Source of the DNA: Sulfurimonas sp.
Lineage (GTDB): Bacteria > Campylobacterota > Campylobacteria > Campylobacterales > Sulfurimonadaceae
Assembly (NCBI GenBank): GCA_027011725.1
Contig: JALUZQ010000152.1
Location: 1 to 24,848 of the forward strand
Direction of reading: 5' to 3'
Length of the DNA stretch: 24,848 bases
Shown here: positions 6,295-20,332 of the stretch, piece by piece
How positions within the stretch are numbered: position 1 is the stretch's first letter
Layout: each line of letters starts with the position of its first letter
Notes under the pieces: generated by a model
What the model saw: the letters and a program-made list of their open reading frames with translations, nothing else
Database searches by the model: none
Told to the model about the DNA's origin: nothing
Made by a program: the position numbers and the translations under genes

Positions 6295-6336
6295 TTGACA
6301 TATATTATTCTTTTCTACTGCTTTAGAGAGTATAAT
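6295..6336 (+). promoter_or_regulatory. FNR-like box and -10 before the regulator operon
   Basis: TTGAC-ATAT-ATTAT at 6295-6308 is followed by 22 bp and then TATAAT at 6331-6336. This puts the box centre at about -41.5 from the predicted start (about 6343), the class II Crp/Fnr position. The second half-site is one base off the ATCAT seen at the nosB and nosL sites. TTGACA is too far (30 bp) from the -10 to be a -35 hexamer. Confidence 0.55.
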
Positions 6337-6359
6337 TTCTCAAAGTAAGGGAGAAAAGA

Positions 6360-6806
6360 ATGAAAAAATGTTTTTTACAATGGAGTTTGTTATTGCTTGT
6401 TACATCTTTATTTGCTAAAGATGTGCAAATGCAAACCAGAGAGTTTCCACAAGAAGAATTAAAAAAACAAAAAGTATTAATTGCCTCTTTAGCTGCAAAA
6501 GAGCTTTCAAAAACACTTCCTCAAAAAATAGATAACTATACGACTCTTCAATCAGTGAAAAATAGGGATGCTACATTAGTATATACTTTTGTCATAAATA
6601 CAGCTGACAAAAGTGATGAAAGTATTATAAAAGAGGACCATACTCGTATGCAACGAGTTGTTATACGTGGGGTATGTCAATCATCAGCAAGATTTTTAGA
6701 TGCAGGCATTAACACTTCTTATATTTATGTCAGTGCTAAGAGTAAAAAGCAACTTTTCCGTTTTGATGTGACAAAAGAGCGATGTAAAAATTTAGCTGCG
6801 AATTAG
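6360..6806 (+). CDS. Small exported protein of unknown function
   Basis: A 148-residue protein with a Sec signal peptide (KK, then a hydrophobic core, likely cut after SLFA near residue 19). The mature part is rich in charged residues and has two cysteines, in RGVCQSS and close to the end in KERCKNL, which could form a disulfide in the periplasm. I do not recognise a named family. The spread of motifs (LPQKIDNYTTLQSV, then VYTFVINT, then GINTSYIYVSA, then a C-terminal Cys) resembles small two-cysteine periplasmic hypothetical proteins seen in several proteobacteria. AAGGGAG lies 6 nt before the ATG. It is first in a unit with the Crp/Fnr regulator (8 bp gap) and has an FNR-like box in its promoter, so a role in the same response is inferred. 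Confidence 0.85.
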   Translation: MKKCFLQWSLLLLVTSLFAKDVQMQTREFPQEELKKQKVLIASLAAKELSKTLPQKIDNYTTLQSVKNRDATLVYTFVINTADKSDESIIKEDHTRMQRVVIRGVCQSSARFLDAGINTSYIYVSAKSKKQLFRFDVTKERCKNLAAN

Positions 6807-6814
6807 GTCTGTTT

Positions 6815-7483
6815 TTGTCCCTTAAAGATACTATTAAAGAGCAAGATTTTTTCAATACACTGAATGAAGAGCAAATAGAGAAACTCTCTTCTTTTGCTAC
6901 TTTGCATCACTATGAAAAAGAGTATATTCTTTATTACGAACGTCAAGAGAGCCATGAACTCTGTTTTTTAGTCAAAGGTTTAGCCAAAGCCTACAAGCTT
7001 GATAAGCATGATAATGAAATTTTTCTTTATTATATCTATGAAAATTCTATGATATCAGAGCTTTCCAATATACAAGGCAATACTTTACTCTCTTTTTCAA
7101 ATATTTCCTTTATCGAAGATTCTCATCTGCTTAAAATTAATTATAAAAAATTTAAAGAGGAATTTTTGGATAAACAACTCTTATGTCATCAATTCAGCTC
7201 TGCACTTCTAGAACGCTCTTTACAGATGCAGTCATTGATAAATAGAGAGTTTATTTTTGATGCAGTCTCAAAAGTGAGTATGATGTTGCGTGAAGACCTT
7301 GCGATGTTCAATAAACTTAAGCGTCATGACATCTCATTAATGCTGCATATTCAACCGGCAACACTGTCTCGAGTTTTGAATAGGCTAAAACGCAATAATA
7401 TTATTGATATAATACAGGGAAAGGTGAAAGTTTTGAATGTGCAGGCATTAGAAGAAATTTATAAGGATAAAGCAGATGGATAA
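6815..7483 (+). CDS. Crp/Fnr-family transcriptional regulator (NssR/DNR-like)
   Basis: A 222-residue regulator with an N-terminal cyclic-nucleotide-type beta-roll (roughly 15-130), a dimer helix, and a C-terminal winged HTH (roughly 165-215). The recognition helix PATLSRVLNRL keeps the Ser-Arg pair that reads TTGA in FNR, but the FNR Glu position is Ala. Only two cysteines are present (in HELCFLV and LLCHQF), so the four-Cys [4Fe-4S] oxygen sensor of FNR is absent. The protein is therefore more like DNR/NssR regulators, which respond to nitrogen oxides. The start is TTG with AGGT 6 nt upstream. It overlaps the next gene by 8 bp. Four FNR-like boxes in this window, one in its own promoter, are its likely targets; this is inferred, not shown. 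Confidence 0.88.
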   Translation: MSLKDTIKEQDFFNTLNEEQIEKLSSFATLHHYEKEYILYYERQESHELCFLVKGLAKAYKLDKHDNEIFLYYIYENSMISELSNIQGNTLLSFSNISFIEDSHLLKINYKKFKEEFLDKQLLCHQFSSALLERSLQMQSLINREFIFDAVSKVSMMLREDLAMFNKLKRHDISLMLHIQPATLSRVLNRLKRNNIIDIIQGKVKVLNVQALEEIYKDKADG

Positions 7484-8429
7484 GATAAAATTTCTGAGTG
7501 CATTGATATTTGTGCTTTCATTACTTTTGGCATTCTATTCAAAGCATATAGCACAGGAAAATGATGCTAATCTCAATCTGCTTAAAGTTATAAATGAACA
7601 AAAGGCTTTCACCCAAGAGATATCAAAAAATATATTTTATATCTATAATAATAAGCATGCTTCTACGAAACAACTCAATGAATCAATAGCCGCTTTTGTC
7701 GAAAACGTAAACCATAAAGAAGAGATACTTGGTGAACTGGATGATGAACAGATACGTAAACAGACAGAAAAAATTATTCGTTTGTGGAACAAATTTTATC
7801 TACTTGTTCAAAAATTTCGAGATGTAAGTAAAGTACATAATGGTTATACGAATATTATTCAAGAAAAACTTGTTAGTGATATATACAATGCAAACTTAGA
7901 TCTTGTTGTTGCGTTTGATAAACTTATTTTGATGCATAAAAAGTATTATGATGCCTTGAAAAGTAGAGATAAAACAATACAGATTGCTCTATTTGTTGTC
8001 TTACTTTTACTGCTTGTCTATCTTTTTACACAGCTTAAAGGTCTCCTTCTCTTTGTTCAAAAGTTTTTGCACACATCTAAAAATATTATTCGAAAATCGA
8101 CCGTGCAGGGCGTGAAACCTATTGAAGTAGAAGCAAATGTAGCAGATGTCTCTGAAGCACTCAATGACTTTAACTATTTGATTTCAAAAATTGATAGATC
8201 TATTGATACTTCTTCGAATGCCATTGAAAAAAGTGTAGAGTCTTTAGAAGATATAGAAAAGAACATTGAAGATTTGATTGAATTGATTTCAATAATGCAA
8301 GAGGGCGAGTCTTTGGATAAAGAGCTCATTAAAAAAGAGGATATTCTCATAGAAACACTCGATGAGCTCAGTTTGAGTGCACAGAGACTGCAAAATCTTA
8401 AAAAAGAGCTACAAAACTTTAAAAAATAA
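7476..8429 (+). CDS. Two-TM membrane protein with periplasmic domain and cytoplasmic coiled coil
   Basis: A 317-residue protein with TM1 at about 5-23, a mostly helical periplasmic domain at about 24-166, TM2 at about 168-187, and a cytoplasmic tail at about 188-317 rich in E, K, L and I that should form coiled coils. The topology is that of a sensor (histidine kinase or chemoreceptor), but I see no HAMP, kinase, methyl-accepting or GGDEF output domain. The segment NEQKAFTQEISKNIF faintly recalls the PilJ/NarX-type helical sensor domain; this is a weak hint only. The gene overlaps the regulator gene (ATGGATAA), so they are coupled. It may sense a signal and act through the regulator or another partner; this is inference. 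Confidence 0.85.
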   Translation: MDKIKFLSALIFVLSLLLAFYSKHIAQENDANLNLLKVINEQKAFTQEISKNIFYIYNNKHASTKQLNESIAAFVENVNHKEEILGELDDEQIRKQTEKIIRLWNKFYLLVQKFRDVSKVHNGYTNIIQEKLVSDIYNANLDLVVAFDKLILMHKKYYDALKSRDKTIQIALFVVLLLLLVYLFTQLKGLLLFVQKFLHTSKNIIRKSTVQGVKPIEVEANVADVSEALNDFNYLISKIDRSIDTSSNAIEKSVESLEDIEKNIEDLIELISIMQEGESLDKELIKKEDILIETLDELSLSAQRLQNLKKELQNFKK

Positions 8430-8442
8430 AATTAATTAAACA

Positions 8443-8486
8443 ATTTGACCTGAGTCAAATTTTTCACGCCATTTGTGTATTATTAT
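8443..8486 (+). promoter_or_regulatory. nosZ promoter with perfect FNR/DNR-type palindrome
   Basis: ATTTGAC-CTGA-GTCAAAT (8443-8460) is a perfect inverted repeat with 7-bp arms whose core TTGAC-N4-GTCAA is the FNR/DNR class of site. The core ends 22 bp before TATTAT (8481-8486), so its centre is at about -41.5 from a start near 8493. This is the strongest of the four sites in the window and would make nosZ directly dependent on a Crp/Fnr-type activator. Confidence 0.75.
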
Positions 8487-8496
8487 TTTTCTATCA

Positions 8497-8514
8497 TTTG
8501 AGAAAATTCTCAAA
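8497..8514 (+). promoter_or_regulatory. Hairpin at the 5' end of the nosZ leader
   Basis: TTTGAGAA-AA-TTCTCAAA is a perfect 8-bp-arm inverted repeat beginning about 4 nt after the predicted nosZ start point and ending before the ribosome site (AAGGAG 8523-8528). As RNA it would be a 5'-terminal stem-loop, a position known to protect messages from decay. It could instead be a second operator. Confidence 0.45.
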
Positions 8515-8534
8515 ATGAAATGAAGGAGAATAAA

Positions 8535-11135
8535 ATGGCTACTCATTTAAGTAAGCTGCTTTCACTTGTTGTAAGTACCTCTATAGCTGCTACAGTTGCG
8601 TCTGCTGCTATAGGCGGAGAGTTACAAAAAGTTATGAAGGCAAGGGGGTTAACAGAAAAAGATGTTATTCATGCTGCTAAAACATATACACCAAGTGGTG
8701 GCAGGGATGAATTCATCGTTTTTAGTTCAGGTGGACAGTCTGGACAGATGATTGTCTATGGTGTTCCAACTATGAGAATCTTAAAGTATATCGCTGTATT
8801 TACGCCAGAACCATGGCAAGGGTACGGATATGATGAAGATTCAAAGAAGGTTTTAAGACAGGGGAATATCCGCGGTCGTGAGATTAACTGGGGAGATACT
8901 CACCATCCGGCACTTTCAGAAAAAGACGGAAAGTATGATGGTAAATGGCTCGTAATTAATGACAAGGCAAATCCTCGTGTTGCAGTTATTGACCTAAAAG
9001 ATTTTGAGACAAAGCAGATTGTTGTGAATCCTGTTTTTAAATCTGAGCATGGTGGAGCATTTTTTACACCAAATTCAGAATATATTTTAGAAGCATCTCA
9101 GTATGCTGCACCGTTTGATAATAACTATCATCCAATCGAGGAGTATAAAGAGACATACCGTGGGGGTGTGACACTTTGGAAATTTGATTCAAAAATTGGT
9201 CGTATTAAACCAAAGGACTCTTTTGTTCTTGAACTGCCTCCATATATGCAGGATTTAAGTGATGCTGGTAAAGGTGCTTCTTATGGATGGGGCTTTACAA
9301 ACTCATTTAACTCTGAAATGTACACAGGTGGTATAGAAGTTGGTATGCCTCCGTTTGAAGCAGGTTGTTCAAGAAATGATACTGACTTTTTACATGTATA
9401 CAACTGGAAGAAATTAGCGCAGCTCGCTAAAAATAAGAAAAACTATAAAATGATCAATGGTATCAGAGTAATTCCTATGAGCGTGGCTGTAAAAAATGAT
9501 GCACTCTTTTTGATTCCTGAACCAAAATCACCACATGGTGTGGATGTTTCTCCTGATGGTGAGTACATTACGGTTTGTGGAAAACTCGATACACACGCTT
9601 CAGTCTATAAATGGAGTAAAATCAAAAAGTTAATTAAAAATCATGAGTATGCAGGAAAAGATCCATATGGGATTCCTATTTTAGATATGAAGAAAGCTCT
9701 TCATGGTCAGGTAGAGCTAGGTCTTGGGCCACTGCATAACCAATACTCTAATGTTGATGGTGAGATATACACGTCACTTTATGTTGATTCTCAAATTGTA
9801 AAATGGAACTATAAAAAATTGAAAGTTCTTGATAAAGTAAATGTACACTACAATGTTGGTCACTTATGTGGTATGGAAGGAAAATCTGCTGATCCTCAAG
9901 GAAAATACATTATCTCTTTGAACAAATTAGCAATTGACAGATTTGATCCTGTTGGTCCACTGCATCCACAAAATCATCAGTTGATCGATGTAAGCGGTAA
10001 AAAAATGGATATGCTTGTTGACATGCCTTTACCTTTAGGTGAACCACATCAAGCAGTTGCTATTCGTGCGAGTAAATTACACCCTGAAGTACGATATAAA
10101 ATGGGTACAAATACTAAAACTGGGAAGCCACATATTGGTAAAACTTTAGCTGGTCAAGAGAGAATTGTTAGAAAAGGTAAAAATGTTTATGTTTATGCAA
10201 CTCTTGTAAGATCTCACATTAATCCTGAGAGAATTACAGTGAATAAAGGGGATACGGTAACTATTTACTTAACAAATCTTGAACGTGCGCAAGATGAGAC
10301 ACATGGTTTTACAGTCGATAACTTTGACATTCATGCTTCACTCGAGCCGGGTGAGACTGCTGAATTGAAATTCAAAGCAGATATTGAGGGTGTTTTCCCT
10401 TACTACTGTACAGAGTTCTGTTCTGCACTTCACTTAGAAATGATGGGTTACATGATGGTTAAAGATCCTAACAAAAAATATGTAAGTGCTCAAAAACTTA
10501 AAATGAAAAAAATGTCTAAAGCGGAATTGAAAGCTGAGTATGACAAAACTGTTGCTGTAAATGCTGCTACAGATGCTGTTATCCAATCAGTTGTGAAGTT
10601 CTTAAAAGCGAATCATTATGAGAAATATCCAACTGTGAAAGCACTTGTTGAAGATGCACTTGATCAGTATGGCAAAATTCCTGAACAGAAAAAATTATCT
10701 GACAAAGCTGTAAAAGCCGGAGATTATGAAAAAGCCGTTCTTTTTGAAAATATGATTTGGCAATACATGGTTAAAACTGCCGATGTTGGTATTCGTGCCA
10801 AAGATTTACTTGTGAAAAAAGTTGCAACGAAACAATCTCCTGCTGCTGAAGCCGGTGAGAGAGCATTTGGTGAAGGTGGATGTGGCGGATGTCATGTTAT
10901 TGGTAAAGTTTCATCTGGTCCAGACTTAACAGGTGTTCTTTTAAGACATGAAAATGCAGAGAAATGGGTAAAAGATTTTATACTTGACCCAGCATCTAAA
11001 TATAACGATCCATATGTGAAAAGTATGATAGATTACTTCAATCTAAAAATGCCTAATCAACATATGAATGAAGAAGAAGTGAAAAACATCATCGAATACC
11101 TTAAATGGGTCGATGAGAATGCGAACTTATTCTAA
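8535..11135 (+). CDS. nosZ: Nitrous-oxide reductase, clade II, with C-terminal cytochrome c domain
   Basis: An 866-residue periplasmic enzyme reducing N2O to N2. It has a Sec signal peptide (no twin arginine; likely cut at ASAA), as in clade II enzymes. All seven CuZ histidines can be placed: H123, H124, H172, H334, H401, H443, H505. The cupredoxin CuA site has H590, C625, C629, H633 and M636, with spacing identical to the Pseudomonas stutzeri enzyme. A C-terminal cytochrome c domain carries CGGCH (C783, C786, H787), the fused heme typical of Campylobacterota cNosZ. ATG 8535 was chosen over 8520 because AAGGAG lies 6 nt before it. The gene has its own FNR-type promoter and a hairpin follows it. 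Confidence 0.98.
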   Translation: MATHLSKLLSLVVSTSIAATVASAAIGGELQKVMKARGLTEKDVIHAAKTYTPSGGRDEFIVFSSGGQSGQMIVYGVPTMRILKYIAVFTPEPWQGYGYDEDSKKVLRQGNIRGREINWGDTHHPALSEKDGKYDGKWLVINDKANPRVAVIDLKDFETKQIVVNPVFKSEHGGAFFTPNSEYILEASQYAAPFDNNYHPIEEYKETYRGGVTLWKFDSKIGRIKPKDSFVLELPPYMQDLSDAGKGASYGWGFTNSFNSEMYTGGIEVGMPPFEAGCSRNDTDFLHVYNWKKLAQLAKNKKNYKMINGIRVIPMSVAVKNDALFLIPEPKSPHGVDVSPDGEYITVCGKLDTHASVYKWSKIKKLIKNHEYAGKDPYGIPILDMKKALHGQVELGLGPLHNQYSNVDGEIYTSLYVDSQIVKWNYKKLKVLDKVNVHYNVGHLCGMEGKSADPQGKYIISLNKLAIDRFDPVGPLHPQNHQLIDVSGKKMDMLVDMPLPLGEPHQAVAIRASKLHPEVRYKMGTNTKTGKPHIGKTLAGQERIVRKGKNVYVYATLVRSHINPERITVNKGDTVTIYLTNLERAQDETHGFTVDNFDIHASLEPGETAELKFKADIEGVFPYYCTEFCSALHLEMMGYMMVKDPNKKYVSAQKLKMKKMSKAELKAEYDKTVAVNAATDAVIQSVVKFLKANHYEKYPTVKALVEDALDQYGKIPEQKKLSDKAVKAGDYEKAVLFENMIWQYMVKTADVGIRAKDLLVKKVATKQSPAAEAGERAFGEGGCGGCHVIGKVSSGPDLTGVLLRHENAEKWVKDFILDPASKYNDPYVKSMIDYFNLKMPNQHMNEEEVKNIIEYLKWVDENANLF

Positions 11136-11156
11136 ACAGAATAGGTACTTATTTCT

Positions 11157-11182
11157 AAGAGTGAAGGGTCTCCTTCACTCTT
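11157..11182 (+). terminator. Strong hairpin between nosZ and nosB
   Basis: AAGAGTGAAGG-GTCT-CCTTCACTCTT is a perfect 11-bp stem with a 4-nt loop, 21 bp after the nosZ stop. No T-run follows (CCCCATTAAAAA), so it may be an inefficient terminator or a 3' stabilising element that lets nosZ message outlast the downstream genes. Confidence 0.65.
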
Positions 11183-11194
11183 CCCCATTAAAAA

Positions 11195-11237
11195 TTGACA
11201 TATATCATTAACTTTTATGTAGCAATTTAGATATAAT
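11195..11237 (+). promoter_or_regulatory. FNR-like box and -10 before nosB
   Basis: TTGAC-ATAT-ATCAT (11195-11208) is followed by 23 bp and then TATAAT at 11232-11237. The spacing is within 1 bp of the nosZ promoter, so this looks like a second class II Crp/Fnr promoter that starts the nosB-to-second-nosD run. The region from there to the nosB start is very AT-rich. Confidence 0.6.
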
Positions 11238-11308: not shown

Positions 11309-12094
11309 ATGCACCCAAGTTTAATGAAAGCTAAAATTTTTGCTTTTTTAGCTTTAATCATACTCACCTTTGCGTTTACACTGCCAATGATTGCGTTTCA
11401 CGGTACACTCAATCAGATTGATGCAGGAAAAGAGAACGAGGTTTCATCATTTAGTAAAACAATCTGGAACCTTTATAATAAAGGCAGATACAAAAGTGTA
11501 ACAACACCGCCAGAAGCACGTAATAATTTAGAGAAGATGATTGACACGGCTTCAGAAATAGGTCCGGCATCTCTGCCAATATGGGCAGTTTCACTCGAAG
11601 CTCCAAACTATCCCAAAGAGGCTTTTCCTGAAGGTATTCCTGTTTATTTTCACTTTGATGGTTACAGTGGTGAAGTTCATGAGATGAATACTATTAACCA
11701 TTATGTCGGAATGGATCCGATGTGGGTAGGTGGACATTTTGAGAGAGCTATAGGGATCTATGCACTTTTGTTTTTGTCTTTAGGAATTATTCTTTTTATC
11801 GCATATGACAACAAATATTTGAACTATATTATGCTTATTCCTGCGGCATTGCCACTTATTTTTATCGCCGATTACTCCTATTGGCTCTATTGGTTTGGGC
11901 ACAATCTCCATGACTGGGGAGCCTTTAAAATCAAACCCTTTATGCCGACGGTATTTGGAGATGGAAAAATTGCTCAATTTACAACGCACTCATACCCGAC
12001 TATAGGGTTTTATGCTCTGCTTGCAGTGAGTATCTTGAGTATTTTGGCATTTTTTGCAAAACAAAAAGCTTTTAAAGAGATGGAAGAAAAATAA
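11309..12094 (+). CDS. nosB: NosB-like membrane protein of the clade II nos cluster
   Basis: A 261-residue integral membrane protein with one N-terminal TM (about 9-30), a periplasmic region of about 110 residues, and three further TMs in the C-terminal half. It contains the aromatic, His-bearing segment DYSYWLYWFGHNLHDWGAF. NosB is the membrane protein encoded just after nosZ in clade II clusters and found almost only there; position, length and topology fit. Its exact role is not known; electron transfer or NosZ maturation at the membrane has been suggested. AGAAGGA precedes the ATG. One base separates its stop from the nosD start. Confidence 0.85.
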   Translation: MHPSLMKAKIFAFLALIILTFAFTLPMIAFHGTLNQIDAGKENEVSSFSKTIWNLYNKGRYKSVTTPPEARNNLEKMIDTASEIGPASLPIWAVSLEAPNYPKEAFPEGIPVYFHFDGYSGEVHEMNTINHYVGMDPMWVGGHFERAIGIYALLFLSLGIILFIAYDNKYLNYIMLIPAALPLIFIADYSYWLYWFGHNLHDWGAFKIKPFMPTVFGDGKIAQFTTHSYPTIGFYALLAVSILSILAFFAKQKAFKEMEEK

Positions 12095-12095
12095 G

Positions 12096-13316
12096 ATGTT
12101 TGTAAGAATATTTGTATCATTTTTGTATTTGTTCATAAGTACGCTTAGTGCAAATATTCTACAAGATGCTATAGATAAGGCACCAGCCGGATCTATTTTA
12201 AAACTTCCAAATGGAGTCTATAAAGGTACTGTTCATATAGACAAAGCACTCTCTATAATAGGAGAGGGAGATAATGTTGTCATTGACGGTGAGAATGAAG
12301 GGACTGTCATTACAAGTAAAGGCTCTTTTGTAACACTGAAAAACCTGACAATCATAAACAGTGGTGATAGACATGAGAAGGTTGATGCTGCTATTTCAAT
12401 GAGTGATGCTTCGCAGTGTGAAATCAGTAACTGTGTCATTAAAAACTGTCTTTTTGGAATAGATCTGCAGATGGTGCATAATTCAATAATTGCTGACAAT
12501 AATATAACATCCAAAGACTTTGAACTTGGTTTACGTGGTGACGGACTTCGTCTTTGGTACTCCAATGACAATATAGTCAGAGGAAACTCTTTAATAAAAT
12601 CACGTGATATGGTTGTTTGGTACTCTCACGGAAATGAAATAATTAATAATTATGGGAGAAATAACCGCTACTCTCTACACTTTATGTACGCTGGAAAAAA
12701 TATTATCAAGAACAACCGATATGAGCTTAATTCTGTAGGAATATTTTTTATGTACTCCCAAGATTCCATCGCGATTGGTAATGTTGTGAAAAGTTCTCAA
12801 GGCGCAACAGGAATGGGAATAGGGCTCAAAGATGTTTCAAATTTCACCATTAAAGATAATACCGTTATCTACTGTGCACAGGGAATGTATATAGATAGAA
12901 GCCCCTTTGAACCAGATACGCATAATTGGATAGAAGGAAACAAGATACTCTATAATGCAGAAGCGATGCATTTTCACTCTGTTAGCGAGCACAATATTAT
13001 TAAAGATAATATCATTATGGGAAATATTGAAGATATTGTAAATGATTCTCGAGGTTCAAAAACCAATGAGAATGAAATTGCGGGGAACTATTGGGACAAG
13101 TATGAAGGTTTTGATAAAAATAGAGACGGCATAGGTGATACTCCGCATAAGGTGTATCAGTACGCGGATCAACTTTGGGTATACAACTCGGATGTGAAGT
13201 TCTTTTATGGTTCACCGGTAATATCGCTGCTCAATTTTCTTGCAAAATTGGCACCTTTTACAAAACCGCTCTTTTTGATGGAAGATCCAAAACCAAAAAT
13301 CAGTAAAGCAATATAA
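12096..13316 (+). CDS. nosD: NosD, periplasmic copper-site maturation protein
   Basis: A 406-residue right-handed beta-helix protein with a Sec signal peptide (cut near TLSA-N). Repeated NxI/NxxxxN rungs of the CASH type run through most of the length. Typical NosD aromatic repeats are visible: GDGLRLWYS, RDMVVWYS, RYSLHFMYA, GIFFMYS and AMHFHS. The conserved C-terminus has GNYWDKYEGFDKNRDGIGD. NosD works with the NosFY ABC transporter to build the CuZ sulfide-copper centre of NosZ. I start at ATG 12096, which has GGAAG 9 nt upstream and gives a proper signal peptide; the longer frame from 12054 would add 14 mostly basic residues inside nosB. Confidence 0.95.
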   Translation: MFVRIFVSFLYLFISTLSANILQDAIDKAPAGSILKLPNGVYKGTVHIDKALSIIGEGDNVVIDGENEGTVITSKGSFVTLKNLTIINSGDRHEKVDAAISMSDASQCEISNCVIKNCLFGIDLQMVHNSIIADNNITSKDFELGLRGDGLRLWYSNDNIVRGNSLIKSRDMVVWYSHGNEIINNYGRNNRYSLHFMYAGKNIIKNNRYELNSVGIFFMYSQDSIAIGNVVKSSQGATGMGIGLKDVSNFTIKDNTVIYCAQGMYIDRSPFEPDTHNWIEGNKILYNAEAMHFHSVSEHNIIKDNIIMGNIEDIVNDSRGSKTNENEIAGNYWDKYEGFDKNRDGIGDTPHKVYQYADQLWVYNSDVKFFYGSPVISLLNFLAKLAPFTKPLFLMEDPKPKISKAI

Positions 13317-13325
13317 AGGACAACT

Positions 13326-14069: not shown

Positions 14070-14079
14070 GGAAGAGAGT

Positions 14080-14718
14080 ATGAAACAAAGTTATAAAAAG
14101 AGTATTGTTAAGAGTTTGATTATGATTCCTTCACTTATGCTGTTAAGTAGTTTTACGGCGTGTAGTGATTCACAAAAAGAAGAAAACAGCAAGCAAACAT
14201 CGAGCAGTGTGGTAGAGGCTGCTACGCCAAAGATAGAGATAGTGCAAAACCAAGATGCGCATGCCGTTAAAGTTGTATCAAAAGAAAAGGAAAAGACTGA
14301 GGGAAGTTCGTACTATTATGATTACGGTGAAAAAAGCGAATATGACCAAAATGCACAACCTGCGAACAAAGATGCCTCTGTGCGAGTGCGTCCACGAACA
14401 GAGGTGGATGCAAATATGAATATTCGTAGCCCTTATGAAGAGGTGAAGGTTTCAATGTTGGTTCGAAAACTGAGTAAAAATTTTATAGTACGATGTTCAC
14501 CATGTCATAATGACTATGCAAATGGGATTATTGGACCTTCTTTATTAGAGAGAAATTCTGAGTATATTTATCATAAAATTCAGGACTTTAAAACAGGAAA
14601 AAAATCAAATCCTTTAATGACGGACCTTATCAAGATGATGAGTGACGATGAAATAAAAGATATGGCAAATGAGATTTACAGCTTTAATAAAGAGATTAAA
14701 AAGATGAGGAACAGATAA
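14080..14718 (+). CDS. nosC1: NosC1, membrane-linked mono-heme cytochrome c
   Basis: A 212-residue c-type cytochrome. The N-terminus looks like a lipoprotein signal (hydrophobic core, then SSFTAC), although Phe at -3 is not classical. A long, low-complexity, charged linker follows (about 30-125). The heme domain carries CSPCH (C139, C142, H143) and a likely Met axial ligand in NPLMTDL or IKMM. It is clearly homologous to NosC2 in the heme domain. Such cytochromes probably carry electrons from NosGH to the heme of NosZ. ATG 14080 is chosen because GGAAGAG lies just upstream and the signal sequence starts there; the longer frame from 14041 overlaps nosG. Confidence 0.9.
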   Translation: MKQSYKKSIVKSLIMIPSLMLLSSFTACSDSQKEENSKQTSSSVVEAATPKIEIVQNQDAHAVKVVSKEKEKTEGSSYYYDYGEKSEYDQNAQPANKDASVRVRPRTEVDANMNIRSPYEEVKVSMLVRKLSKNFIVRCSPCHNDYANGIIGPSLLERNSEYIYHKIQDFKTGKKSNPLMTDLIKMMSDDEIKDMANEIYSFNKEIKKMRNR

Positions 14719-15212
14719 TGAAAAATATAATCGTAGGATTTTTTGTAATTGTAATTTTTGGCTTGGCAGCATGGACAGCGATGCGCGGTGGTGCATACAA
14801 TGGTGGTGAGCATGGAAAGGTGATTGCTGATATAGGCAATAGAACGGCTACCGCTAAAGATAGTGAACCACAAGAGAAAAGTGACAGAGAAAAAGAGAAT
14901 GAAGCACTTAATGCTTTACGTGAGAAAGCAGGGAATATCAGTGGTTTCAAAGTAAGTGATGAGTATAAAAGTAAGTGTTCGTCTTGTCATGGTGTTGATG
15001 GCAGTGGTATGCAGTATGGGAAAAAACTGATGGGGCCAAAACTCTTTGGTCAAAGTGCAGATGAAATCTATAAAAAACTCGATGATTTTAAATCAGGCAG
15101 AAAAGAAAATATGGTCATGAAGGGTTTATTAATTCATATGACAAAAGAGGATTTGCGTAGATTTGCAGATGAGATAGGTGAGTTTCCAGCGCGAGCAAAA
15201 GCAATGAAATAG
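14718..15212 (+). CDS. nosC2: NosC2, membrane-anchored mono-heme cytochrome c
   Basis: A 164-residue protein with an uncleaved-looking N-terminal TM (about 4-21), a charged linker, and a class I-like heme domain with CSSCH (C87, C90, H91), HGVDGSGMQYG, GPKLFG and a likely Met ligand in NMVMKGLL. The heme domain aligns with that of NosC1 along its whole length (KxxDDFKSGRK against KIQDFKTGKK), so the pair arose by duplication. ATG overlaps the nosC1 TAA by one base (TAATG). Confidence 0.92.
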   Translation: MKNIIVGFFVIVIFGLAAWTAMRGGAYNGGEHGKVIADIGNRTATAKDSEPQEKSDREKENEALNALREKAGNISGFKVSDEYKSKCSSCHGVDGSGMQYGKKLMGPKLFGQSADEIYKKLDDFKSGRKENMVMKGLLIHMTKEDLRRFADEIGEFPARAKAMK

Positions 15213-15221
15213 GATAATATG

Positions 15222-16127
15222 ATGGATAAGTATCACAATAGAGAGACGATAAAAAAAACAACATTTTGGTCGACATTTTTTAATACAACAAGAGATGGTA
15301 AGAAAATCCTTAGCTACAGAGCCAAGAGGTGGATACTCGTTATTGCTATTCATCTGCTCTTTTTTCTCTCTTTTGCGATTGATATTCAAACCTTAGAGGG
15401 AACACTCAATGGTTCACGGTTTTTAGGTTTTCACCTTATTGATCCGTTTACAAGCTTAGAGATGTTGATGGCAGAGCATCATCTACATATAAATATCATT
15501 ATTGGTGTGAGTACCATTGTTATATTTTATATGCTTGTAGGTGGGCGAACATACTGTGCATGGGTCTGTCCATATGGAATTTTGAGTGAGATAGGTGAAA
15601 AGTGGCACGATACCTTGGTGCATAAAAAAATCATTAAAAATCGAAAATTCGATCATCGTATTCGCTACGCTTTTTGGGCAATATTTTTAATTCTCTCTTT
15701 TACAAGTGGGTATTTGGTCTTTGAAACTATAAATGTTGTCGGTATTCTCTCTCGTGCAATTACATATGGCTGGAGTTTGGCTCTTATCTGGGTCGTTGTT
15801 GTACTTGCTTTTGAGGTCTTTTTTTCGCGCCGTGCATGGTGTACTTACATTTGTCCAATAGGAACGACGTATGGTATGATAGGAAAAGTCTCAGCTCTGA
15901 GAGTTGAATGGAATGACAACTGTGACCACTGTATGGTTTGTCATGATGTCTGTTTCGAAAATCAAGTTTTAGAGATCACAAAAGCAAAATATGATAAACA
16001 AAGAGAAGAAGAGGGAATTACGCATGAGTATATTACCGGTGCAGATTGTACACTATGTGGAAGATGTATTGATGTTTGCCATGAAGATGCGCTTAACTTC
16101 GACTTTAGACTAAAAAGTTTGGTGTAG
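15222..16127 (+). CDS. nosH: NosH, NapH-type membrane ferredoxin
   Basis: A 301-residue membrane iron-sulfur protein. Four TMs are visible (about 43-60, 95-115, 145-165, 180-200). Two loop motifs, CAWVCPYG and CTYICPIG, are the paired CxxxCP motifs of the NapH/CcoG-like group. The cytoplasmic C-terminus carries CDHCMVCHDVC and CTLCGRCIDVC for two [4Fe-4S] clusters. NosH is expected to oxidise menaquinol with NosG. Two ATGs occur in tandem (15219 and 15222); AGGA at 15211-15214 is 7 nt from the second and only 4 nt from the first, so I use 15222. It lies 9 bp after nosC2 (6 bp if the first ATG is used) and 2 bp before nosF. Confidence 0.93.
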   Translation: MDKYHNRETIKKTTFWSTFFNTTRDGKKILSYRAKRWILVIAIHLLFFLSFAIDIQTLEGTLNGSRFLGFHLIDPFTSLEMLMAEHHLHINIIIGVSTIVIFYMLVGGRTYCAWVCPYGILSEIGEKWHDTLVHKKIIKNRKFDHRIRYAFWAIFLILSFTSGYLVFETINVVGILSRAITYGWSLALIWVVVVLAFEVFFSRRAWCTYICPIGTTYGMIGKVSALRVEWNDNCDHCMVCHDVCFENQVLEITKAKYDKQREEEGITHEYITGADCTLCGRCIDVCHEDALNFDFRLKSLV

Positions 16128-16129
16128 TT

Positions 16130-16774
16130 ATGATAAAAGTTTCAAATCTGACAAAGAAGTTCGGTGCTCATGTGTCACTCGATGATGTAAACTGTGAATT
16201 TAATAAAAATGAATCGATTGCTTTAATGGGTGCAAACGGAGCGGGAAAAACAACCTTAATACGTTCTATTATGGGCTATTACCATCCTGATCAGGGGGAA
16301 GTGCTTATAAACGAACTGAACCCTGTCAAAGAGCGTGTAGCGGTTTTAAACCATATCAGTTTTGTTCCGCAACTGCCGCCGCCGATTAAACTTAGTATTG
16401 AAGAACTGATGCAGTACATCTCTGTAAGTGCACAGGTTGATAAAGAGCTTATCAAGCACTATGCCAATGAGATGAAACTCGACATTAATTCCAACCTGAG
16501 CAAATCTTTTTTCAAGCTTAGCGGCGGGATGAAGCAAAAGCTACTCATTGCTATCTCTCTTGCAAAAAAGAGTGACATTATCATCTACGATGAACCGACA
16601 GCGAACCTTGACCCCAAAGCAAGAGATGATTTTTACAGACTCCTCAAGCAAAATGAAGAGGAGAAAGTGCTGCTTTTTGTTACACACAGACTCGAAGAGG
16701 TCAAAGACCTTGTCAACAGACAGATATATATGGACTTGGGGAAAATAGTTTCAGATGAGAGGGTAGAGGGATGA
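16130..16774 (+). CDS. nosF: NosF, ABC transporter ATPase
   Basis: A 214-residue ABC ATPase with Walker A GANGAGKTT (34-42), Q-loop FVPQLPPP, signature LSGGMKQK, Walker B IIIYDEPTANLDP and the switch histidine in VTHRLEE. It is short for the NosF family (usually near 300), ending soon after the H-loop, and so lacks the usual C-terminal extension. NosF powers the NosFY exporter that works with NosD in CuZ sulfur/copper assembly. Its stop overlaps the nosY start (ATGA). Confidence 0.94.
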   Translation: MIKVSNLTKKFGAHVSLDDVNCEFNKNESIALMGANGAGKTTLIRSIMGYYHPDQGEVLINELNPVKERVAVLNHISFVPQLPPPIKLSIEELMQYISVSAQVDKELIKHYANEMKLDINSNLSKSFFKLSGGMKQKLLIAISLAKKSDIIIYDEPTANLDPKARDDFYRLLKQNEEEKVLLFVTHRLEEVKDLVNRQIYMDLGKIVSDERVEG

Positions 16775-17598
16775 AAAATTTATATTTAATAGCCTATTTG
16801 GATCTTAAAGAGTCTATTCGTGCAAAATGGTTTCTCGTCTATTCATTAGTCTTTGGCGGACTCATAGCACTCTTTTTTATAGCAGGTGTGACAGAGTCAC
16901 AAGTAATGGGCTTTAGCGGGCTGAGCCGTCTACTGTTGATGTACATTCAAATTACCATCGTTATTTTGCCAATTTTCATTCTTATTACGACAGTGCGTTC
17001 TATTTCAGGTGACAGAGACAGTCATATTTTGGAGTATATGCTCTCTTTTCCTATCTCTTTGAAACAGTATTACTGGGGGAAAATCATAGGAAGATTTATA
17101 ACGGTCTATCTGCCCGTGCTTTTTGCTATGATTATTGCCGTGGTTTATGGGGCTATCAAGGGTGCGGCAATTCCATGGAGTATATTCTTTTTATATACAG
17201 GGTTGTTATTTGCTATGAGTGCCACCTTTTTAGGGATTGCTTTTTTTATCTCCTCTTTTGTAAAATCAAGTGAAGTAGCACTTGGTATATCCTTTTTTAT
17301 CTGGATCTTTTTACTCGCTTTTATTGACATCGCACTCATCTCTTTGATGATGCAGCAGCGTGTTGATGAGGGAATTATTATACTTATAAGTTTGATGAAC
17401 CCAATGGAGATTTTCAGAGTAGCGGCTATATCTCTTTTTGATCCGCAACTAACAGTAATGGGGCCTGTGGCATTTTACATTTTAGACTCTGTATCACAAA
17501 GTACTTTTGTTCTACTCTCAATTGCGTATCCGTTAATTTTAGGATTGTTGTTTGCATTTCTTGGTTACAAGATATTTGAAAAAAAAGATTTGGTTTAG
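16771..17598 (+). CDS. nosY: NosY, ABC transporter permease
   Basis: A 275-residue permease with six hydrophobic segments (about 20-40, 53-75, 110-130, 140-165, 173-195, 245-268) and the motif RSISGDRDSHILEYMLSFPIS typical of ABC-2 permeases of the NosY type. It forms the membrane part of NosFY and overlaps nosF by 4 bp. The nosL-like gene follows after 8 bp. Confidence 0.94.
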   Translation: MKNLYLIAYLDLKESIRAKWFLVYSLVFGGLIALFFIAGVTESQVMGFSGLSRLLLMYIQITIVILPIFILITTVRSISGDRDSHILEYMLSFPISLKQYYWGKIIGRFITVYLPVLFAMIIAVVYGAIKGAAIPWSIFFLYTGLLFAMSATFLGIAFFISSFVKSSEVALGISFFIWIFLLAFIDIALISLMMQQRVDEGIIILISLMNPMEIFRVAAISLFDPQLTVMGPVAFYILDSVSQSTFVLLSIAYPLILGLLFAFLGYKIFEKKDLV

Positions 17599-17606
17599 GA
17601 GATAAA

Positions 17607-18077
17607 ATGAAAAAGATAACACTGCTACTGTTTGTACTCTCTACACTGCTTTTCTCATTTGAGATGAATTACGATAAAAATACGACAGGTTTGGTACGAC
17701 ATTTAAAAATCTATGAATATCCTGCATGGGTATCTGTGATAGACTTAAATAACGGGGAGAGAATTTACTTCTCTTCACCAAAAGGAATGTTCGAGTTTTA
17801 TTTCAGACCCGGAAAGTGGCCGGAATACAACATTAAAAGTGAGTCGGACTTTAAAGATATTTATGTGACGGATTACGCTACGAGTAAGCCGGTAAAAGCA
17901 AAAGGGGCATTTTTTGTTTATGGAAGCGATGTTACTTCTCCTGCGGGTGATGACTTAGTACCTTTTGATTCTTATAAAAATGCAGAGAAATTTTCAAAAG
18001 AGCATAATGGAAAGCGTATTTTTGGTTTTCGTGAGGTTAATCGCGGACTAATTAACTGGCTCAACGATAGCTTATAG
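17607..18077 (+). CDS. NosL-family protein lacking the metal-binding cysteines
   Basis: A 156-residue exported protein with a Sec signal peptide (cut near LFSF) and no lipobox. The second half has the NosL/MerB-like fold signature: IYFSSPKGMFEFYF, DIYVTDYATSKPVKAKGAFFVYGSDV, then GDDLVPFDSYKNAEKFSKEHNGKRIFGF. There is no Cys anywhere, so the CxxCxM copper-binding motif of canonical NosL is missing. It sits where nosL is expected in the nos run, while a second, canonical NosL is encoded on the minus strand at 19819-20265. It may have become a structural partner of the copper chaperone, or bind metal through Met/His. Confidence 0.85.
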   Translation: MKKITLLLFVLSTLLFSFEMNYDKNTTGLVRHLKIYEYPAWVSVIDLNNGERIYFSSPKGMFEFYFRPGKWPEYNIKSESDFKDIYVTDYATSKPVKAKGAFFVYGSDVTSPAGDDLVPFDSYKNAEKFSKEHNGKRIFGFREVNRGLINWLNDSL

Positions 18078-18086
18078 GAGTATATG

Positions 18087-18611
18087 ATGACAAAACCAAC
18101 ACCGATAGATGAAGAGATAGTTCTAGACCCGAAACGTTATATTGTGAGTGAAACAGATGAAAAAGGCAGGATTACGTTTGCCAATGACTACTTTCAAGAG
18201 GTATCAGGCTACAGTGAAGAAGAACTCATCGGTAAACCGCATAATATTGTACGCCACCCTGATATGCCTAAGGTTGTCTTTAAGCTGCTGTGGGAGACAA
18301 TAGGTGCCGGAAAAAACATCAATGCTGTTGTGAAAAACTTGGCAAAAGATGGCAGGTACTACTGGATATTTACAGAATTTGAGATTCGAAAAGATACCGA
18401 TACGGGAAAAATCATCGGCTATCATGCCTCAAGAAAAAAGATATCACGTCATGTTATTGAAATCATAGCTGAACTGTATGCAAAACTTTTAGAGATTGAA
18501 AAGTCTGATGGTGTGGAGGCAAGTGAGAAGTATCTCATTGAATTCTTAAAAGAGAAGGGTGATGATATAGAGTTTGCCAATATTATGGAAGAGATTCATA
18601 GGTTCTATTAG
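18087..18611 (+). CDS. Stand-alone PAS protein, Aer/CetB-like
   Basis: A 174-residue soluble protein. Residues about 15-125 form a PAS domain with the Aer-type signature: ETDEKGRITFAND, FQEVSGYSEEELIGKPHN, VRHPDMPK, LLWETIGAGK, KNLAKDGRYYWIF. Aer PAS domains of this type bind FAD and read redox state. The remaining part is helical, with no kinase, HTH, GGDEF or chemoreceptor domain. Campylobacter CetB has the same build and works with a separate membrane partner, CetA, in energy taxis. The second of two adjacent ATGs (18084, 18087) is used because AGGAG lies 6 nt before it. It is embedded in the nos run, 9 bp after the nosL-like gene. Confidence 0.88.
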   Translation: MTKPTPIDEEIVLDPKRYIVSETDEKGRITFANDYFQEVSGYSEEELIGKPHNIVRHPDMPKVVFKLLWETIGAGKNINAVVKNLAKDGRYYWIFTEFEIRKDTDTGKIIGYHASRKKISRHVIEIIAELYAKLLEIEKSDGVEASEKYLIEFLKEKGDDIEFANIMEEIHRFY

Positions 18612-18629
18612 CCTTGTAGATGAGATAAA

Positions 18630-19832
18630 ATGAGAACAGTTCTGCTTTTTTGGATTTTTATCTCTACACTGCTTGCAAATCCTTTACAAGATGCTATTGA
18701 TAAGGCTTCTAGTGGTGCTATTATTAAACTGCAAGATGGTCTCTATGAGGGAAATATTATCATTGACAAACCACTTACCATTATGGGAATGGGTGAACAT
18801 GTGCATATTAAAGGAAGAGCAGATGGAAACGTTGTCACCATTACAAGTTCATCCGTAACTCTTAGAAATCTCATCATCACTGACAGTGGTCAAAATATGC
18901 AAAAGATTGACGCTGGAATTGCGCTTACACAGGTGAGAAACTGTAATATAATTCACTGCACTCTTTTTAATGTACTCTATGGAATTGATATGAATATGGT
19001 TGAGAACTCCACCATAGAGGCAAATGATATAACAGTCACAAAAGATGAGATAAGTCTGAGGGGTAATGGCTTAAAGATGTACTACTCAAATTTCAATAGA
19101 GTAGCAAAAAACAGTATACATGACAGTAGAGATGTCACTCTCAACTACTCTCATCATAATCTTTTTGAAAAAAACAGCTTTACGAACAATAGATTTGCAA
19201 CACATTTAGAGATGAGTAACAGCAATATATTTGTAAAAAACAGCTACAAATACAACTCTGTGGCTATGATGTTTATGGGTGCAAAAGATACACAGGTCAT
19301 AGGCAATAAAATTCTCAGCTCACGTGGTGCTGCGGGTATCGGTGTTATGATAGGGGGTGTTGCAAACTTTGTCTTTAAAGAGAATCTTGTGCGTTATAAT
19401 GCAAAAGCACTCTATATTCAAGGGCAGGAGAAAGCGTTGGGAATGAAGCGCTATATTTTAAACAATGACATCTCTTACAATATGGAAGCTTTCCATTTTC
19501 ATGCAAGTATTAAAGACAATACTATGAAAGGCAATACGATCTATGCAAACATAGATGATGTCGTGAAAGATGTCGGTGGAAATTTTGATGCTTCAAATGT
19601 CGTGGAGTATAACTACTGGGACAGATATGATGGTTTTGATGCAAACAAGGACGGTGTAGGAGATACTCCTTACCGCGTTTATCAGTATGGTGATTTACTA
19701 TGGCACGAGAACAATAAAATAAAGTTCTTTTATGCAGCGCCCGTAATGAGCTTACTGAATTTTTTACTTAAACTCGCCCCTTTTATGGAGCCAAATATGA
19801 TTATGCAAGATTCAAAACCTATCTTCCGATAG
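18630..19832 (+). CDS. Second, divergent NosD-like beta-helix protein
   Basis: A 400-residue paralogue of the nosD product encoded 5.3 kb upstream. It has a Sec signal peptide (cut near LLAN) and aligns end to end with NosD, sharing LQDAIDKA at the mature N-terminus, GIDMNMVENS, HFHAS, YDGFDANKDGVGDTPY, YQYGDLLW and SLLNFLLKLAPF. The aromatic repeats of NosD are altered: LWYS becomes MYYS, VVWYS becomes TLNYS, SLHFMYA becomes ATHLEMS, and FFMYS becomes MMFMG. It may bind a different ligand or help the first NosD. It is the last gene of the nos run, and its 3' end overlaps the minus-strand nosL by 14 bp. Confidence 0.88.
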   Translation: MRTVLLFWIFISTLLANPLQDAIDKASSGAIIKLQDGLYEGNIIIDKPLTIMGMGEHVHIKGRADGNVVTITSSSVTLRNLIITDSGQNMQKIDAGIALTQVRNCNIIHCTLFNVLYGIDMNMVENSTIEANDITVTKDEISLRGNGLKMYYSNFNRVAKNSIHDSRDVTLNYSHHNLFEKNSFTNNRFATHLEMSNSNIFVKNSYKYNSVAMMFMGAKDTQVIGNKILSSRGAAGIGVMIGGVANFVFKENLVRYNAKALYIQGQEKALGMKRYILNNDISYNMEAFHFHASIKDNTMKGNTIYANIDDVVKDVGGNFDASNVVEYNYWDRYDGFDANKDGVGDTPYRVYQYGDLLWHENNKIKFFYAAPVMSLLNFLLKLAPFMEPNMIMQDSKPIFR

Positions 19833-20265
19833 CTCTAACTCTTTTGACTACTTCATCATAATCAACAATCTCTTGCCCTTTGGCAATATCATCTTTTGAT
19901 GCATGGGCTGAAAAACCATAAGCCATAGGCGTAATGTTTTCTGTATCATAAAAAGCTTTGCGGGCATCTATCCACTTGCCTGTTTTGGCATCTGTTACCC
20001 AAATCACCGCTTTATCTTTCCATGGAATCTTTTCATCATCGAACCAGAGTACCATACACCCTATGTCATCAAAGAGATAATACTTTCCCGTTGCAGGGTT
20101 AATGGCCTGCGCAGTATTTTTTCTGTCACTTATAACCATTGCGCAGCGCGCGCACATATCGCGGTCAAAATGGACTTCGTGAATTTGAGTCTTTGATTGT
20201 TTGTCACACCCCGTTGTCGTGAGGAGTGTGAATGTAGATAGAAGTAACAAGAAAAATAGTCTCAT
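19819..20265 (-). CDS. nosL: NosL, copper-binding lipoprotein
   Basis: A 148-residue lipoprotein with lipobox TTTGC (C20) and the NosL motif DMCARCAMVISD (C38, C41, M43), followed by a further Cys in DDIGCMVLW and a typical NosL C-terminal half (VIWVTDAKTGKWIDARKAFY, MAYGFSAH). NosL delivers copper(I) to NosZ for CuA/CuZ assembly. GGGAG lies 8 nt before the ATG. It is transcribed against the nos run from its own FNR-like promoter (20291-20332), so it stays in the same regulon despite its orientation. Confidence 0.93.
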   Translation of the reverse strand: MRLFFLLLLSTFTLLTTTGCDKQSKTQIHEVHFDRDMCARCAMVISDRKNTAQAINPATGKYYLFDDIGCMVLWFDDEKIPWKDKAVIWVTDAKTGKWIDARKAFYDTENITPMAYGFSAHASKDDIAKGQEIVDYDEVVKRVRAIGR

Positions 20266-20290
20266 AGGTAAAGCTCCCTTTTTTGAGCAT

Positions 20291-20332
20291 ATTCTAACTT
20301 GTTATAATTGAAGATATGATGATATAAGTCAA
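20291..20332 (-). promoter_or_regulatory. FNR-like box and -10 of the minus-strand nosL
   Basis: On the minus strand, TTGAC-TTAT-ATCAT (20332-20319) is followed by 22 bp and then TAGAAT (20296-20291), predicting a start near 20284 and a leader of about 19 nt. The spacing equals that of the nosZ promoter, so the box sits at about -41.5. Confidence 0.6.

What the first reader, a model, noticed from the sequence alone, without database searches (positions are those of the whole stretch)
6295..20332. Four promoters of the N2O island share an FNR/DNR-like box at the same -41.5 position
TTGAC-N4-(G/A)T(C/T)A(A/T) occurs at 6295, 8445, 11195 and (minus strand) 20332, each followed after 22, 22, 23 and 22 bp by a -10 hexamer. 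This repeated geometry is hard to get by chance and defines one regulon: the regulator unit, nosZ, the nosB run, and the opposite-strand nosL. The half-site is TTGAC rather than the FNR TTGAT, which may reflect the regulator's altered recognition helix (FNR Glu replaced by Ala).
Basis: partly seen in the sequence, partly recalled or inferred. Interest (0 to 1): 0.72.

Follow-up and report, generated by a model that had tools for sequence, protein, structure and literature searches.

The report
N2O-reductase promoter boxes and sensor module
Four promoters around a bacterial nitrous-oxide reductase gene carry the same regulator-binding box in the same position, and next to them sits a matching regulator with a membrane sensor that looks like a nitrate sensor which has lost its nitrate-binding residues, making it a candidate for the unknown switch of a greenhouse-gas-consuming enzyme.

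Summary
In detail: four TTGAC-N4-RTYAW boxes, each 22-23 bp before a -10 hexamer (0 of 1000 shuffles gave as many). The layout is conserved in Campylobacterota (nosZ 61 of 78 loci, nosB 49 of 70; shuffles 1-3%). They are most likely class II Crp/Fnr (DNR/Nss-type) activator sites. Two parts of the reading fail. (1) It is not one nos regulon: the same promoter type precedes nir-type, porin-like and nap genes in this genome, and nosZ differs, with TTGAC-N4-GTCAA in 26 of 30 genomes with this regulator type, plus two TTGCC-N4-GTCAA. (2) Glu-to-Ala does not explain TTGAC: seven nosZ-linked orthologues keep Glu and the same box type. The larger find: the regulator is paired with a PilJ/NarX-type membrane sensor. 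A paralogous pair sits at napA with the nitrate motif G-x-x-R intact; in the nosZ pair it is N-x-x-K (27 of 27; held-out Lys in 12 of 12). Arg-to-Lys there blinds NarX (PMC7247690 passage). I propose a nitrate module recruited to nosZ with a changed signal, possibly N2O. Binding and signal are inferred.

The parts
6295..6308 (+). Crp/Fnr-type box TTGACATATATTAT of the regulator operon; -10 TATAAT at 6331-6336 (gap 22)
   Evidence: relatives mostly have an AT-type box (TTGAY-N4-ATCAW) here: 14 of 19 boxed, held-out 6 of 12 boxed, one of them symmetric
6360..6806 (+). 148-aa protein with a signal-peptide-like start and two Cys, first gene of the regulator operon ('up148')
   Evidence: only a sub-threshold Pfam match, no NCBIfam match; found before the regulator in 12 of 12 held-out genomes
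6815..7483 (+). Crp/Fnr-family regulator (222 aa), 'nos-type', recognition helix QPATLSRVL
   Evidence: Pfam HTH_Crp_2 and cNMP_binding; 120 listed homologues; tree
7476..8429 (+). membrane sensor partner (317 aa): TM, periplasmic helical part, TM, cytoplasmic helices (membrane topology read from the sequence); PilJ/NarX-type by homology; overlaps the regulator gene by 8 bp
7593..7604 (+). codons 40-43 of the sensor: N-E-Q-K at the place of the nitrate-contact motif G-x-x-R of PilJ/NarX sensors
   Evidence: ungapped alignment
8445..8458 (+). symmetric box TTGACCTGAGTCAA of nosZ; -10 TATTAT at 8481-8486 (gap 22)
   Evidence: the only TTGAC-N4-GTCAA among the genome's 27 pattern matches
8520..11135 (+). 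nosZ, clade II-type (cytochrome c-fused) nitrous oxide reductase
11195..11208 (+). box TTGACATATATCAT of the nosB run; -10 TATAAT at 11232-11237 (gap 23)
11309..19832 (+). nosB-nosD-nosG-cytochromes c-nosH-nosF-nosY-nosL-PAS protein-second nosD
   Evidence: nosB (no family match), nosG, nosH and the cytochrome names by position and recalled cluster order
19819..20265 (-). second NosL-like protein, opposite strand
20319..20332 (-). box TTGACTTATATCAT of the opposite-strand nosL; -10 TAGAAT at 20296-20291 (gap 22)

Best explanation
The four boxes are class II activator sites for dimeric Crp/Fnr-family regulators of the DNR/Nss kind: the protein sits over -41.5 in place of a -35 element and recruits sigma-70 RNA polymerase. 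Two regulators with overlapping taste are most likely at work. A DNR/Nss-like factor (candidate in this genome: the C107 protein, helix PETLSRIF) reads the TTGAY-N4-ATCAW boxes at the regulator operon, nosB, the opposite-strand nosL, nir-type and nap-side genes. The regulator encoded in the window (6815-7483) reads the symmetric TTGAC-N4-GTCAA box of nosZ. It works as a pair with the membrane protein encoded directly behind it (7476-8429), a PilJ/NarX-type periplasmic sensor without a kinase, which probably passes its signal to the regulator by direct contact. The pair is related to a nitrate-type module that sits at napA in relatives; in the nosZ copy both nitrate-contact residues are replaced (Gly to Asn, Arg to Lys), so it should no longer answer to nitrate but to another signal of N2O respiration. 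Shown: sequences, geometry, conservation, gene pairing, substitutions, co-occurrence with nosZ. Inferred: who binds which box, activation, the contact, the signal.
For: Geometry. Conservation in the window plus 80 relatives: nosZ 61 of 78 (shuffles 40 of 1560), nosB 49 of 70 (19 of 1400), regulator operon 12 of 19 (11 of 380), opposite-strand nosL 5 of 11 (5 of 220). Predicted starts 48-49 bases from the box in N. labii. nosZ box against regulator: with the regulator beside nosZ, 20 of 22 TTGAC-N4-GTCAA and 2 of 22 TTGCC-N4-GTCAA; without it there, 3 of 40 symmetric. Held-out near-complete genomes (nosZ 80-92% identical in DNA to the nearest earlier locus): regulator-sensor pair directly upstream of nosZ 12 of 12, box TTGAC-N4-GTCAA with gap 22 in 12 of 12, Lys at the Arg position 12 of 12. 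Co-occurrence in the sampled genus: nosZ+ 23 of 23 with a nos-type regulator, nosZ- 0 of 12. Regulator tree: 27 nos-type rows form one clade (support 100), all with N-x-x-K sensors, beside nap-type rows with the N-box. nap-type pairs: N-box intact 8 of 8 and in 3 of 4, the fourth unreadable. napA boxes are symmetric in 14 of 19 genomes with a nap-type regulator and 2 of 10 without (p 0.016) and in 3 of 3 Arcobacter-type genomes with napA. Sensor homology: PilJ in two Arcobacter-type partners, E 2.8e-16 and 2e-15; weak fold matches to NarQ R50K and McpN.
Against: No transcript start, binding or induction was measured. The box-regulator association rests on few independent events: 3 supported pairs, on average 1.8 the same way, 0 opposite, not significant. 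Exceptions: L056 and L077 have symmetric nosZ boxes and no close regulator found; L052 and L073 have a nos-type regulator and only half-symmetric boxes; napA is symmetric in 2 of 8 genomes with only the nos-type; nosB is symmetric in 4 of 17 boxed nos-type genomes. The regulator operon has no box in 5 of 19 and 6 of 12 held-out genomes, and a symmetric one in L216, so a cascade through that operon is not general. 14 of 41 nosZ+ genomes of the family sample have no nos-type regulator found (some are incomplete). The window's own sensor has no PilJ hit; no fold match reaches E 0.001. The genome is 67.6% complete, so regulators may be missing. The regulator's own cNMP-binding-like domain could carry a ligand.
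Confidence: 0.66

Rival explanations
1. One DNR/Nss-type regulator reads every box; C or T at position 5 of the half-site is neutral or tunes strength, and the nosZ-linked regulator is only one more reader.
For: Same geometry at all promoters; half-sites mix within genomes; symmetric boxes also occur at some napA and nosB promoters and at one held-out regulator operon (L216); few independent changes on the NosZ tree.
Against: nosZ symmetric in 28 of 30 nos-type genomes (2 of them TTGCC) while the regulator operon of the same set is 0 of 14 boxed; 12 of 12 in held-out genomes; the symmetric box is commoner at napA where a nap-type regulator is present.
Confidence: 0.24
2. The TTGAC half-site follows from Glu-to-Ala in the recognition helix.
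For: Ala in 117 of 120 listed homologues; Arcobacter-type orthologues with Glu have TTGAT-type nosZ boxes.
Against: Seven nosZ-linked orthologues with Glu have TTGAC-N4-GTCAA at nosZ, three more in held-out genomes (L221-L223); nap-type regulators with Glu stand at napA genes with symmetric boxes.
Confidence: 0.04
3. The sensor is nitrate-blind because it is decaying or only structural; the regulator senses its signal (for example NO) by itself.
For: FNR-like regulators such as DNR and NnrR are described as NO-sensing on their own (PMC1274295 passages); no contact between the two proteins is shown; L217 has only a 215-aa sensor reading frame.
Against: Lys at the Arg position in 27 of 27 and 12 of 12 sensors and Asn at the Gly position in 27 of 27 and 11 of 12: constrained rather than decaying; the gene stays behind the regulator.
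Confidence: 0.25
4. Chance AT-rich matches or ordinary sigma-70 promoters misread as Fnr boxes.
For: AT-rich DNA; TTGACA resembles a -35 hexamer.
Against: Maximum 1 in 1000 shuffles; 30-31 bp lie between TTGACA and the -10, not about 17; the two-sided box is conserved in relatives.
Confidence: 0.02

Closest known systems
Nss regulators of Wolinella succinogenes (NssA, NssB, NssC)
   Same: Crp/Fnr regulators of nap, nrf and clade II nos in a campylobacterotum; a review states that NssA, NssB and NssC act in response to nitrate, NO and N2O respectively (PMC6682613, passage).
   Different: Their sequences were not obtained here, so orthology is untested; no membrane sensor partner is mentioned in the passages seen. 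The primary paper (Kern and Simon 2016) is not held and was not read.
Crp/Fnr sites of Nitrosophilus labii (PMC11539149; sections 15, 16, 19 and passages seen)
   Same: Boxes upstream of nap, nor, nosZ and nosB; first base of the exact boxes at napA, norE and nosB 48-49 from the predicted start.
   Different: No symmetric nosZ class and no sensor pairing in what was seen ('PilJ' does not occur in the main text); its two regulators are nap- and nor-linked, not nos-linked.
DNR of Pseudomonas and beta-proteobacteria
   Same: FNR-like regulator of nir, nor and nos genes; half-site TTGAT (PMC1274295 passages).
   Different: Different half-site from the nosZ box here; no membrane partner mentioned in the passages seen.
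HcpR
   Same: Assigned TTGACnnnnGTCAA, the form of the nosZ box (PMC1274295 passages).
   Different: Main targets are hcp and related redox genes in other phyla; no nosZ link in the passages seen.
NarX/NarQ and McpN (PilJ-type nitrate sensors)
   Same: Periplasmic helical sensor between two TM helices; homologues beside the nap-type regulators keep the N-box (PMC6381276 passages).
   Different: No kinase or chemotaxis output found; the nosZ-linked version has N-x-x-K in place of G-x-x-R.

Membership tests
Class II Crp/Fnr-dependent promoter | 14-bp inverted-repeat box with about 22 bp between box and -10 | tested here: met
Class II Crp/Fnr-dependent promoter | start point about 41.5 bp from box centre | not testable with these tools
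   no transcripts; N. labii distances of 48-49 from box start agree
Crp/Fnr superfamily regulator | cNMP-binding-like domain plus Crp helix-turn-helix | tested here: met
   PF00027 3.9e-8, PF13545 3.9e-9
FNR proper | N-terminal cysteines for the Fe-S cluster | tested here: not met
   column 124 is the only one with Cys in more than 30 of 121 rows
Nss regulators of W. succinogenes | orthology to NssA, NssB or NssC | not tested
   sequences not obtained
PilJ/NarX nitrate sensor | homology to PilJ-domain sensors and helical-bundle architecture | tested here: met
   27-30% identity to seven partners of the nap-/Arcobacter-type, of which the two scanned have PilJ hits; all-helical model. The window protein alone has no PilJ hit, and fold matches to NarQ and McpN have prob 1.0 but E 0.038 and 0.11
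PilJ/NarX nitrate sensor | N-box / G-x-x-R nitrate contacts | tested here: not met
   N-x-x-K in 27 of 27 nos-type sensors
Clade II nos cluster | cytochrome c-fused NosZ with nosB, D, G, H, F, Y, L | tested here: met
   NosB, NosG and NosH by position and recalled order

The most novel reading that the evidence does not exclude
The regulator-sensor pair upstream of nosZ is a dedicated N2O-sensing device: a duplicated nitrate module whose periplasmic pocket was refitted (G-x-x-R to N-x-x-K) to detect N2O, or a direct correlate of it, and which switches on nosZ through its symmetric box by a kinase-free membrane-to-Crp/Fnr contact.
Probability: 0.25. Interest if true: 0.92.

Novelty: new variant of a known kind. 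Interest (0 to 1): 0.7.

Why it matters
Organisms with nosZ are called the only known biological sink of N2O (abstracts of PMC11148229 and PMC9381517), and how clade II ones sense N2O is open: a 2024 study of a campylobacterotal N2O reducer still lists the presence of an N2O-sensing mechanism as something to be identified (PMC11539149, section 19). The pair described here gives a named candidate, a nitrate-type paralogue in the same genome in many cases as a built-in control, a defined DNA target and single residues to test.

Tried and rejected
Glu-to-Ala as the cause of TTGAC: it looked supported by the Arcobacter-type orthologues, then was contradicted by seven nosZ-linked Glu orthologues. 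'Symmetric box private to nosZ': suggested (20 nos-type genomes: 43 matches, reversed control 16; six genomes have only the nosZ site, and one, G077 with a TTGCC box, has none), weakened when napA proved symmetric in many genomes. Within-genome control with second nosZ copies (5 copies, 68-69% identical): none has a box, but by eye the upstream stretches look like the end of a preceding coding sequence, so they say little. Tree-aware test of box against regulator: right direction, too few independent pairs. Orthology to NssA/B/C: not possible without those sequences. The regulator's own structure was not modelled.

Rows dropped or set apart: nosZ promoters 78 of 81 (3 with too little upstream DNA), nosB 70 of 81. 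In one search, 19 of 81 loci were set apart (15 unknown, 4 with a cut-off block). In one search three of the 30 genomes (L049, L053, L062) count as nos-type from a sensor fragment beside nosZ only, and 'symmetric' means C and G at positions 5 and 10, so two TTGCC nosZ boxes and two ATGAC napA boxes count. In one search two of the 14 symmetric napA boxes begin ATGAC; G190 was left out because its napA lacks its start, and 8 of the 28 genomes searched had no napA at the cut-off. In some searches nos-type was called by identity (52% or more); the 12 genomes were checked by helix and sensor. L221's sensor motif was read by eye.

Names checked late: napA and napH are confirmed by NCBIfam; nirJ is the best but sub-threshold match; a 411-aa gene behind C107 that I first took for nnrS has no Pfam or NCBIfam match and is no longer named.
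Full report
Observation. The four boxes and the spacing are as stated. With the -10 geometry the window has 5 matches, the four sites plus the reverse reading of the nosZ palindrome, against a mean of 0.044 and a maximum of 1 in 1000 dinucleotide shuffles. The window is one contig of a 67.6% complete genome of 1.42 Mb. It encodes ThrRS, IF-3, then a 148-aa protein, a Crp/Fnr regulator, a 317-aa protein without Pfam domain, nosZ, the nos accessory run, and an opposite-strand NosL-like protein.

The regulon is wider than nos. In the whole genome the box pattern has 27 matches at 26 places (reversed control pattern: 13). On the matched strand 7 of the 26 places have a good -10 at gap 22-23: the four window sites; one before a run of a small cytochrome c, a radical SAM protein nearest to NirJ (sub-threshold) and a cytochrome-d1-domain protein, behind another cytochrome-d1-domain gene; one directly behind a second Crp/Fnr regulator (C107), before a weakly rusticyanin-like gene (sub-threshold) and a 411-aa gene without family match; and one before a porin-like gene (weak Alginate_exp match) beside the nap operon. 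The eighth place is napA (NCBIfam equivalog above cut-off), where the other strand reads TTGATATAAGTCAA with a -10 at gap 21. The other 18 places have no such -10, and 16 of them lie inside reading frames of 100 codons or more.

Conservation. In 80 nosZ loci of other genomes (the best 80 of 233) plus the window, a box with at most one mismatch to TTGAYNNNNRTCAA and a -10 at gap 21-23 stands before nosZ in 61 of 78, before nosB in 49 of 70, before the regulator operon in 12 of 19 and before the opposite-strand nosL in 5 of 11; shuffles gave 40 of 1560, 19 of 1400, 11 of 380 and 5 of 220. 17 of the 78 nosZ promoters fail, and so does the window's own 6295 box, which has two mismatches. An independent study of Nitrosophilus labii predicted starts 48-49 bases from exact boxes at napA, norE and nosB, which is what class II geometry requires; its nosZ sites were inexact, and sites overlapping the predicted start are reported there too (same section).

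Two box classes. In loci with the regulator beside nosZ, 20 of 22 nosZ boxes are TTGAC-N4-GTCAA and 2 are TTGCC-N4-GTCAA; where no regulator is seen beside nosZ despite enough DNA, 3 of 40 are symmetric, 12 mixed, 11 AT-type and 14 have none (Fisher 4e-11, not corrected for kinship). On the NosZ tree only 3 supported independent pairs exist; on average 1.8 agree and none disagrees. Whole-genome searches of 58 further loci's genomes found nos-type regulators on other contigs for L036, L039, L041, L052 and L073, and nothing close for L044, L056 and L077. Across 30 nos-type genomes the nosZ box has C and G inside both half-sites in 28 (26 TTGAC, 2 TTGCC), nosB in 4 of 17 boxed (7 without), the regulator operon in 0 of 14 (5 without), the opposite-strand nosL in 0 of 5 (6 without), napA in 10 of 19 (1 without). 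In 12 held-out genomes the regulator operon is boxed in 6 (one symmetric, L216) and nosB in 8 (none symmetric). So nosZ stands apart; that the regulator operon is itself switched by the AT-type reader is a guess that fits only part of the genomes.

The recognition-helix idea. The window regulator has Ala at the position of FNR Glu209 (equivalence recalled; CRP 181 in PMC1274295 passages); 117 of 120 listed homologues share it. But L055, L057, L058, L060, L061, L069 and L072 have PETLSR and a TTGAC-N4-GTCAA nosZ box, as do L221, L222 and L223 among the held-out genomes. So Ala is not the cause.

The sensor. The gene behind the regulator overlaps it by 8 bp. Two homologues beside Arcobacter-type orthologues have PilJ domains (E 2.8e-16, 2e-15) while the window protein has no hit. 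The AlphaFold2 model is all helical (mean pLDDT 81.7, pTM 0.49) and its weak fold matches include NarQ R50K (rank 2, E 0.038) and McpN (rank 5, E 0.11), none at E <= 0.001. Among 42 distinct partners the nitrate N-box core is intact in 15, and in 27 nos-type ones it reads N-x-[QK]-K without gaps. The regulator tree joins the 27 nos-type regulators in one clade (support 100), beside nap- and Arcobacter-type regulators with intact N-box partners (a quick tree). In PilJ-type sensors nitrate is held by G-x-x-R (PMC8199190 passage; PMC6381276 passages), and NarX Arg54 changed to Lys or Ser loses ligand sensitivity (PMC7247690 passage).

Held-out test. In 12 further near-complete genomes, whose nosZ is 80-92% identical in DNA to the nearest earlier locus, the regulator-sensor pair lies directly upstream of nosZ in 12 (1.0-1.1 kb from regulator end to nosZ start, the sensor gene between), the nosZ box is TTGAC-N4-GTCAA with gap 22 in 12, and the sensor has Lys in 12 and Asn in 11 (L221 has Ile). 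Eight nap-type paralogues, all from genomes that also hold the nos-type, lie directly upstream of napA in 8 (1.1-1.3 kb) with an intact N-box in 8. Of four more regulators of 49-51% identity from nosZ-less genomes, three have an N-box partner and one could not be read; one (L233) is directly upstream of napA, one (L236) is divergent from it, one (G186) is about 9 kb away, one (L235) has no napA in the stretch. In three Arcobacter-type genomes the pair is about 13-25 kb from napA on the same contig. In 121 sampled genomes of the family all 27 with a nos-type regulator have nosZ; in the genus 23 of 23 nosZ+ genomes have it and 0 of 12 listed nosZ- genomes, three of which keep a nap-type one by identity. 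14 of 41 nosZ+ genomes of the family have no nos-type regulator found, so it is not needed everywhere. The napA box is symmetric in 14 of 19 genomes with a nap-type regulator, in 2 of 8 with only the nos-type, and absent in both genomes with neither (p 0.016 for 14/19 against 2/10).

Reading. The simplest account is a kinase-free membrane sensor plus Crp/Fnr activator module, of nitrate respiration in relatives, duplicated and placed at nosZ with a changed ligand pocket. The direction nap to nos is inferred from the nitrate motif being shared with other PilJ sensors; the tree is not rooted. Known: DNR/Nss-type control of campylobacterotal nos genes and a reported N2O-responsive NssC in W. succinogenes (PMC6682613 passage). 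Not found in the listings, abstracts and passages of searches: a nosZ-linked Crp/Fnr regulator with a PilJ-type partner. The library lacks most subscription journals, including Kern and Simon 2016, so this is weak evidence of novelty. Binding, contact and signal remain to be tested.

Noticed in passing
18084-18611 (+) and L030:6344-6790 (-): Small PAS-only proteins without output domain sit in both the nos and the nap cluster of this genome; the nos one is up to 93% identical in relatives and stands beside nosZ in some (L051, L076, L080, L111).
   Followed up: partly
18630-19832 (+): Second NosD-like protein directly behind nosL and the PAS gene, in addition to the nosD at 12054.
   Followed up: no
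17607-18077 (+) and 19819-20265 (-): Two NosL-like proteins, one in the run and one on the opposite strand with its own boxed promoter.
   Followed up: partly
L237-L241: Five genomes of the family sample have a second nosZ (about 70% identical to the window's) without a box of its own in the 300 bp before it.
   Followed up: partly
L030:4315-5544 (-), box at G000:C162:5602-5615: A porin-like gene beside the nap operon has a boxed promoter (TTGACTTATATCAA, gap 22, TATAAT), so an outer-membrane channel may belong to the regulon.
   Followed up: no
L121-L123, L131-L135: Related regulators (34-41% identical) in Sulfurospirillum-type and other genomes are paired with a longer sensor (449-471 aa, one cut at 390) with an intact N-box.
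   Followed up: partly
L048: In this locus nosB and the accessory run lie on the opposite strand from nosZ, and its nosZ box is TTGCC-N4-GTCAA.
   Followed up: no
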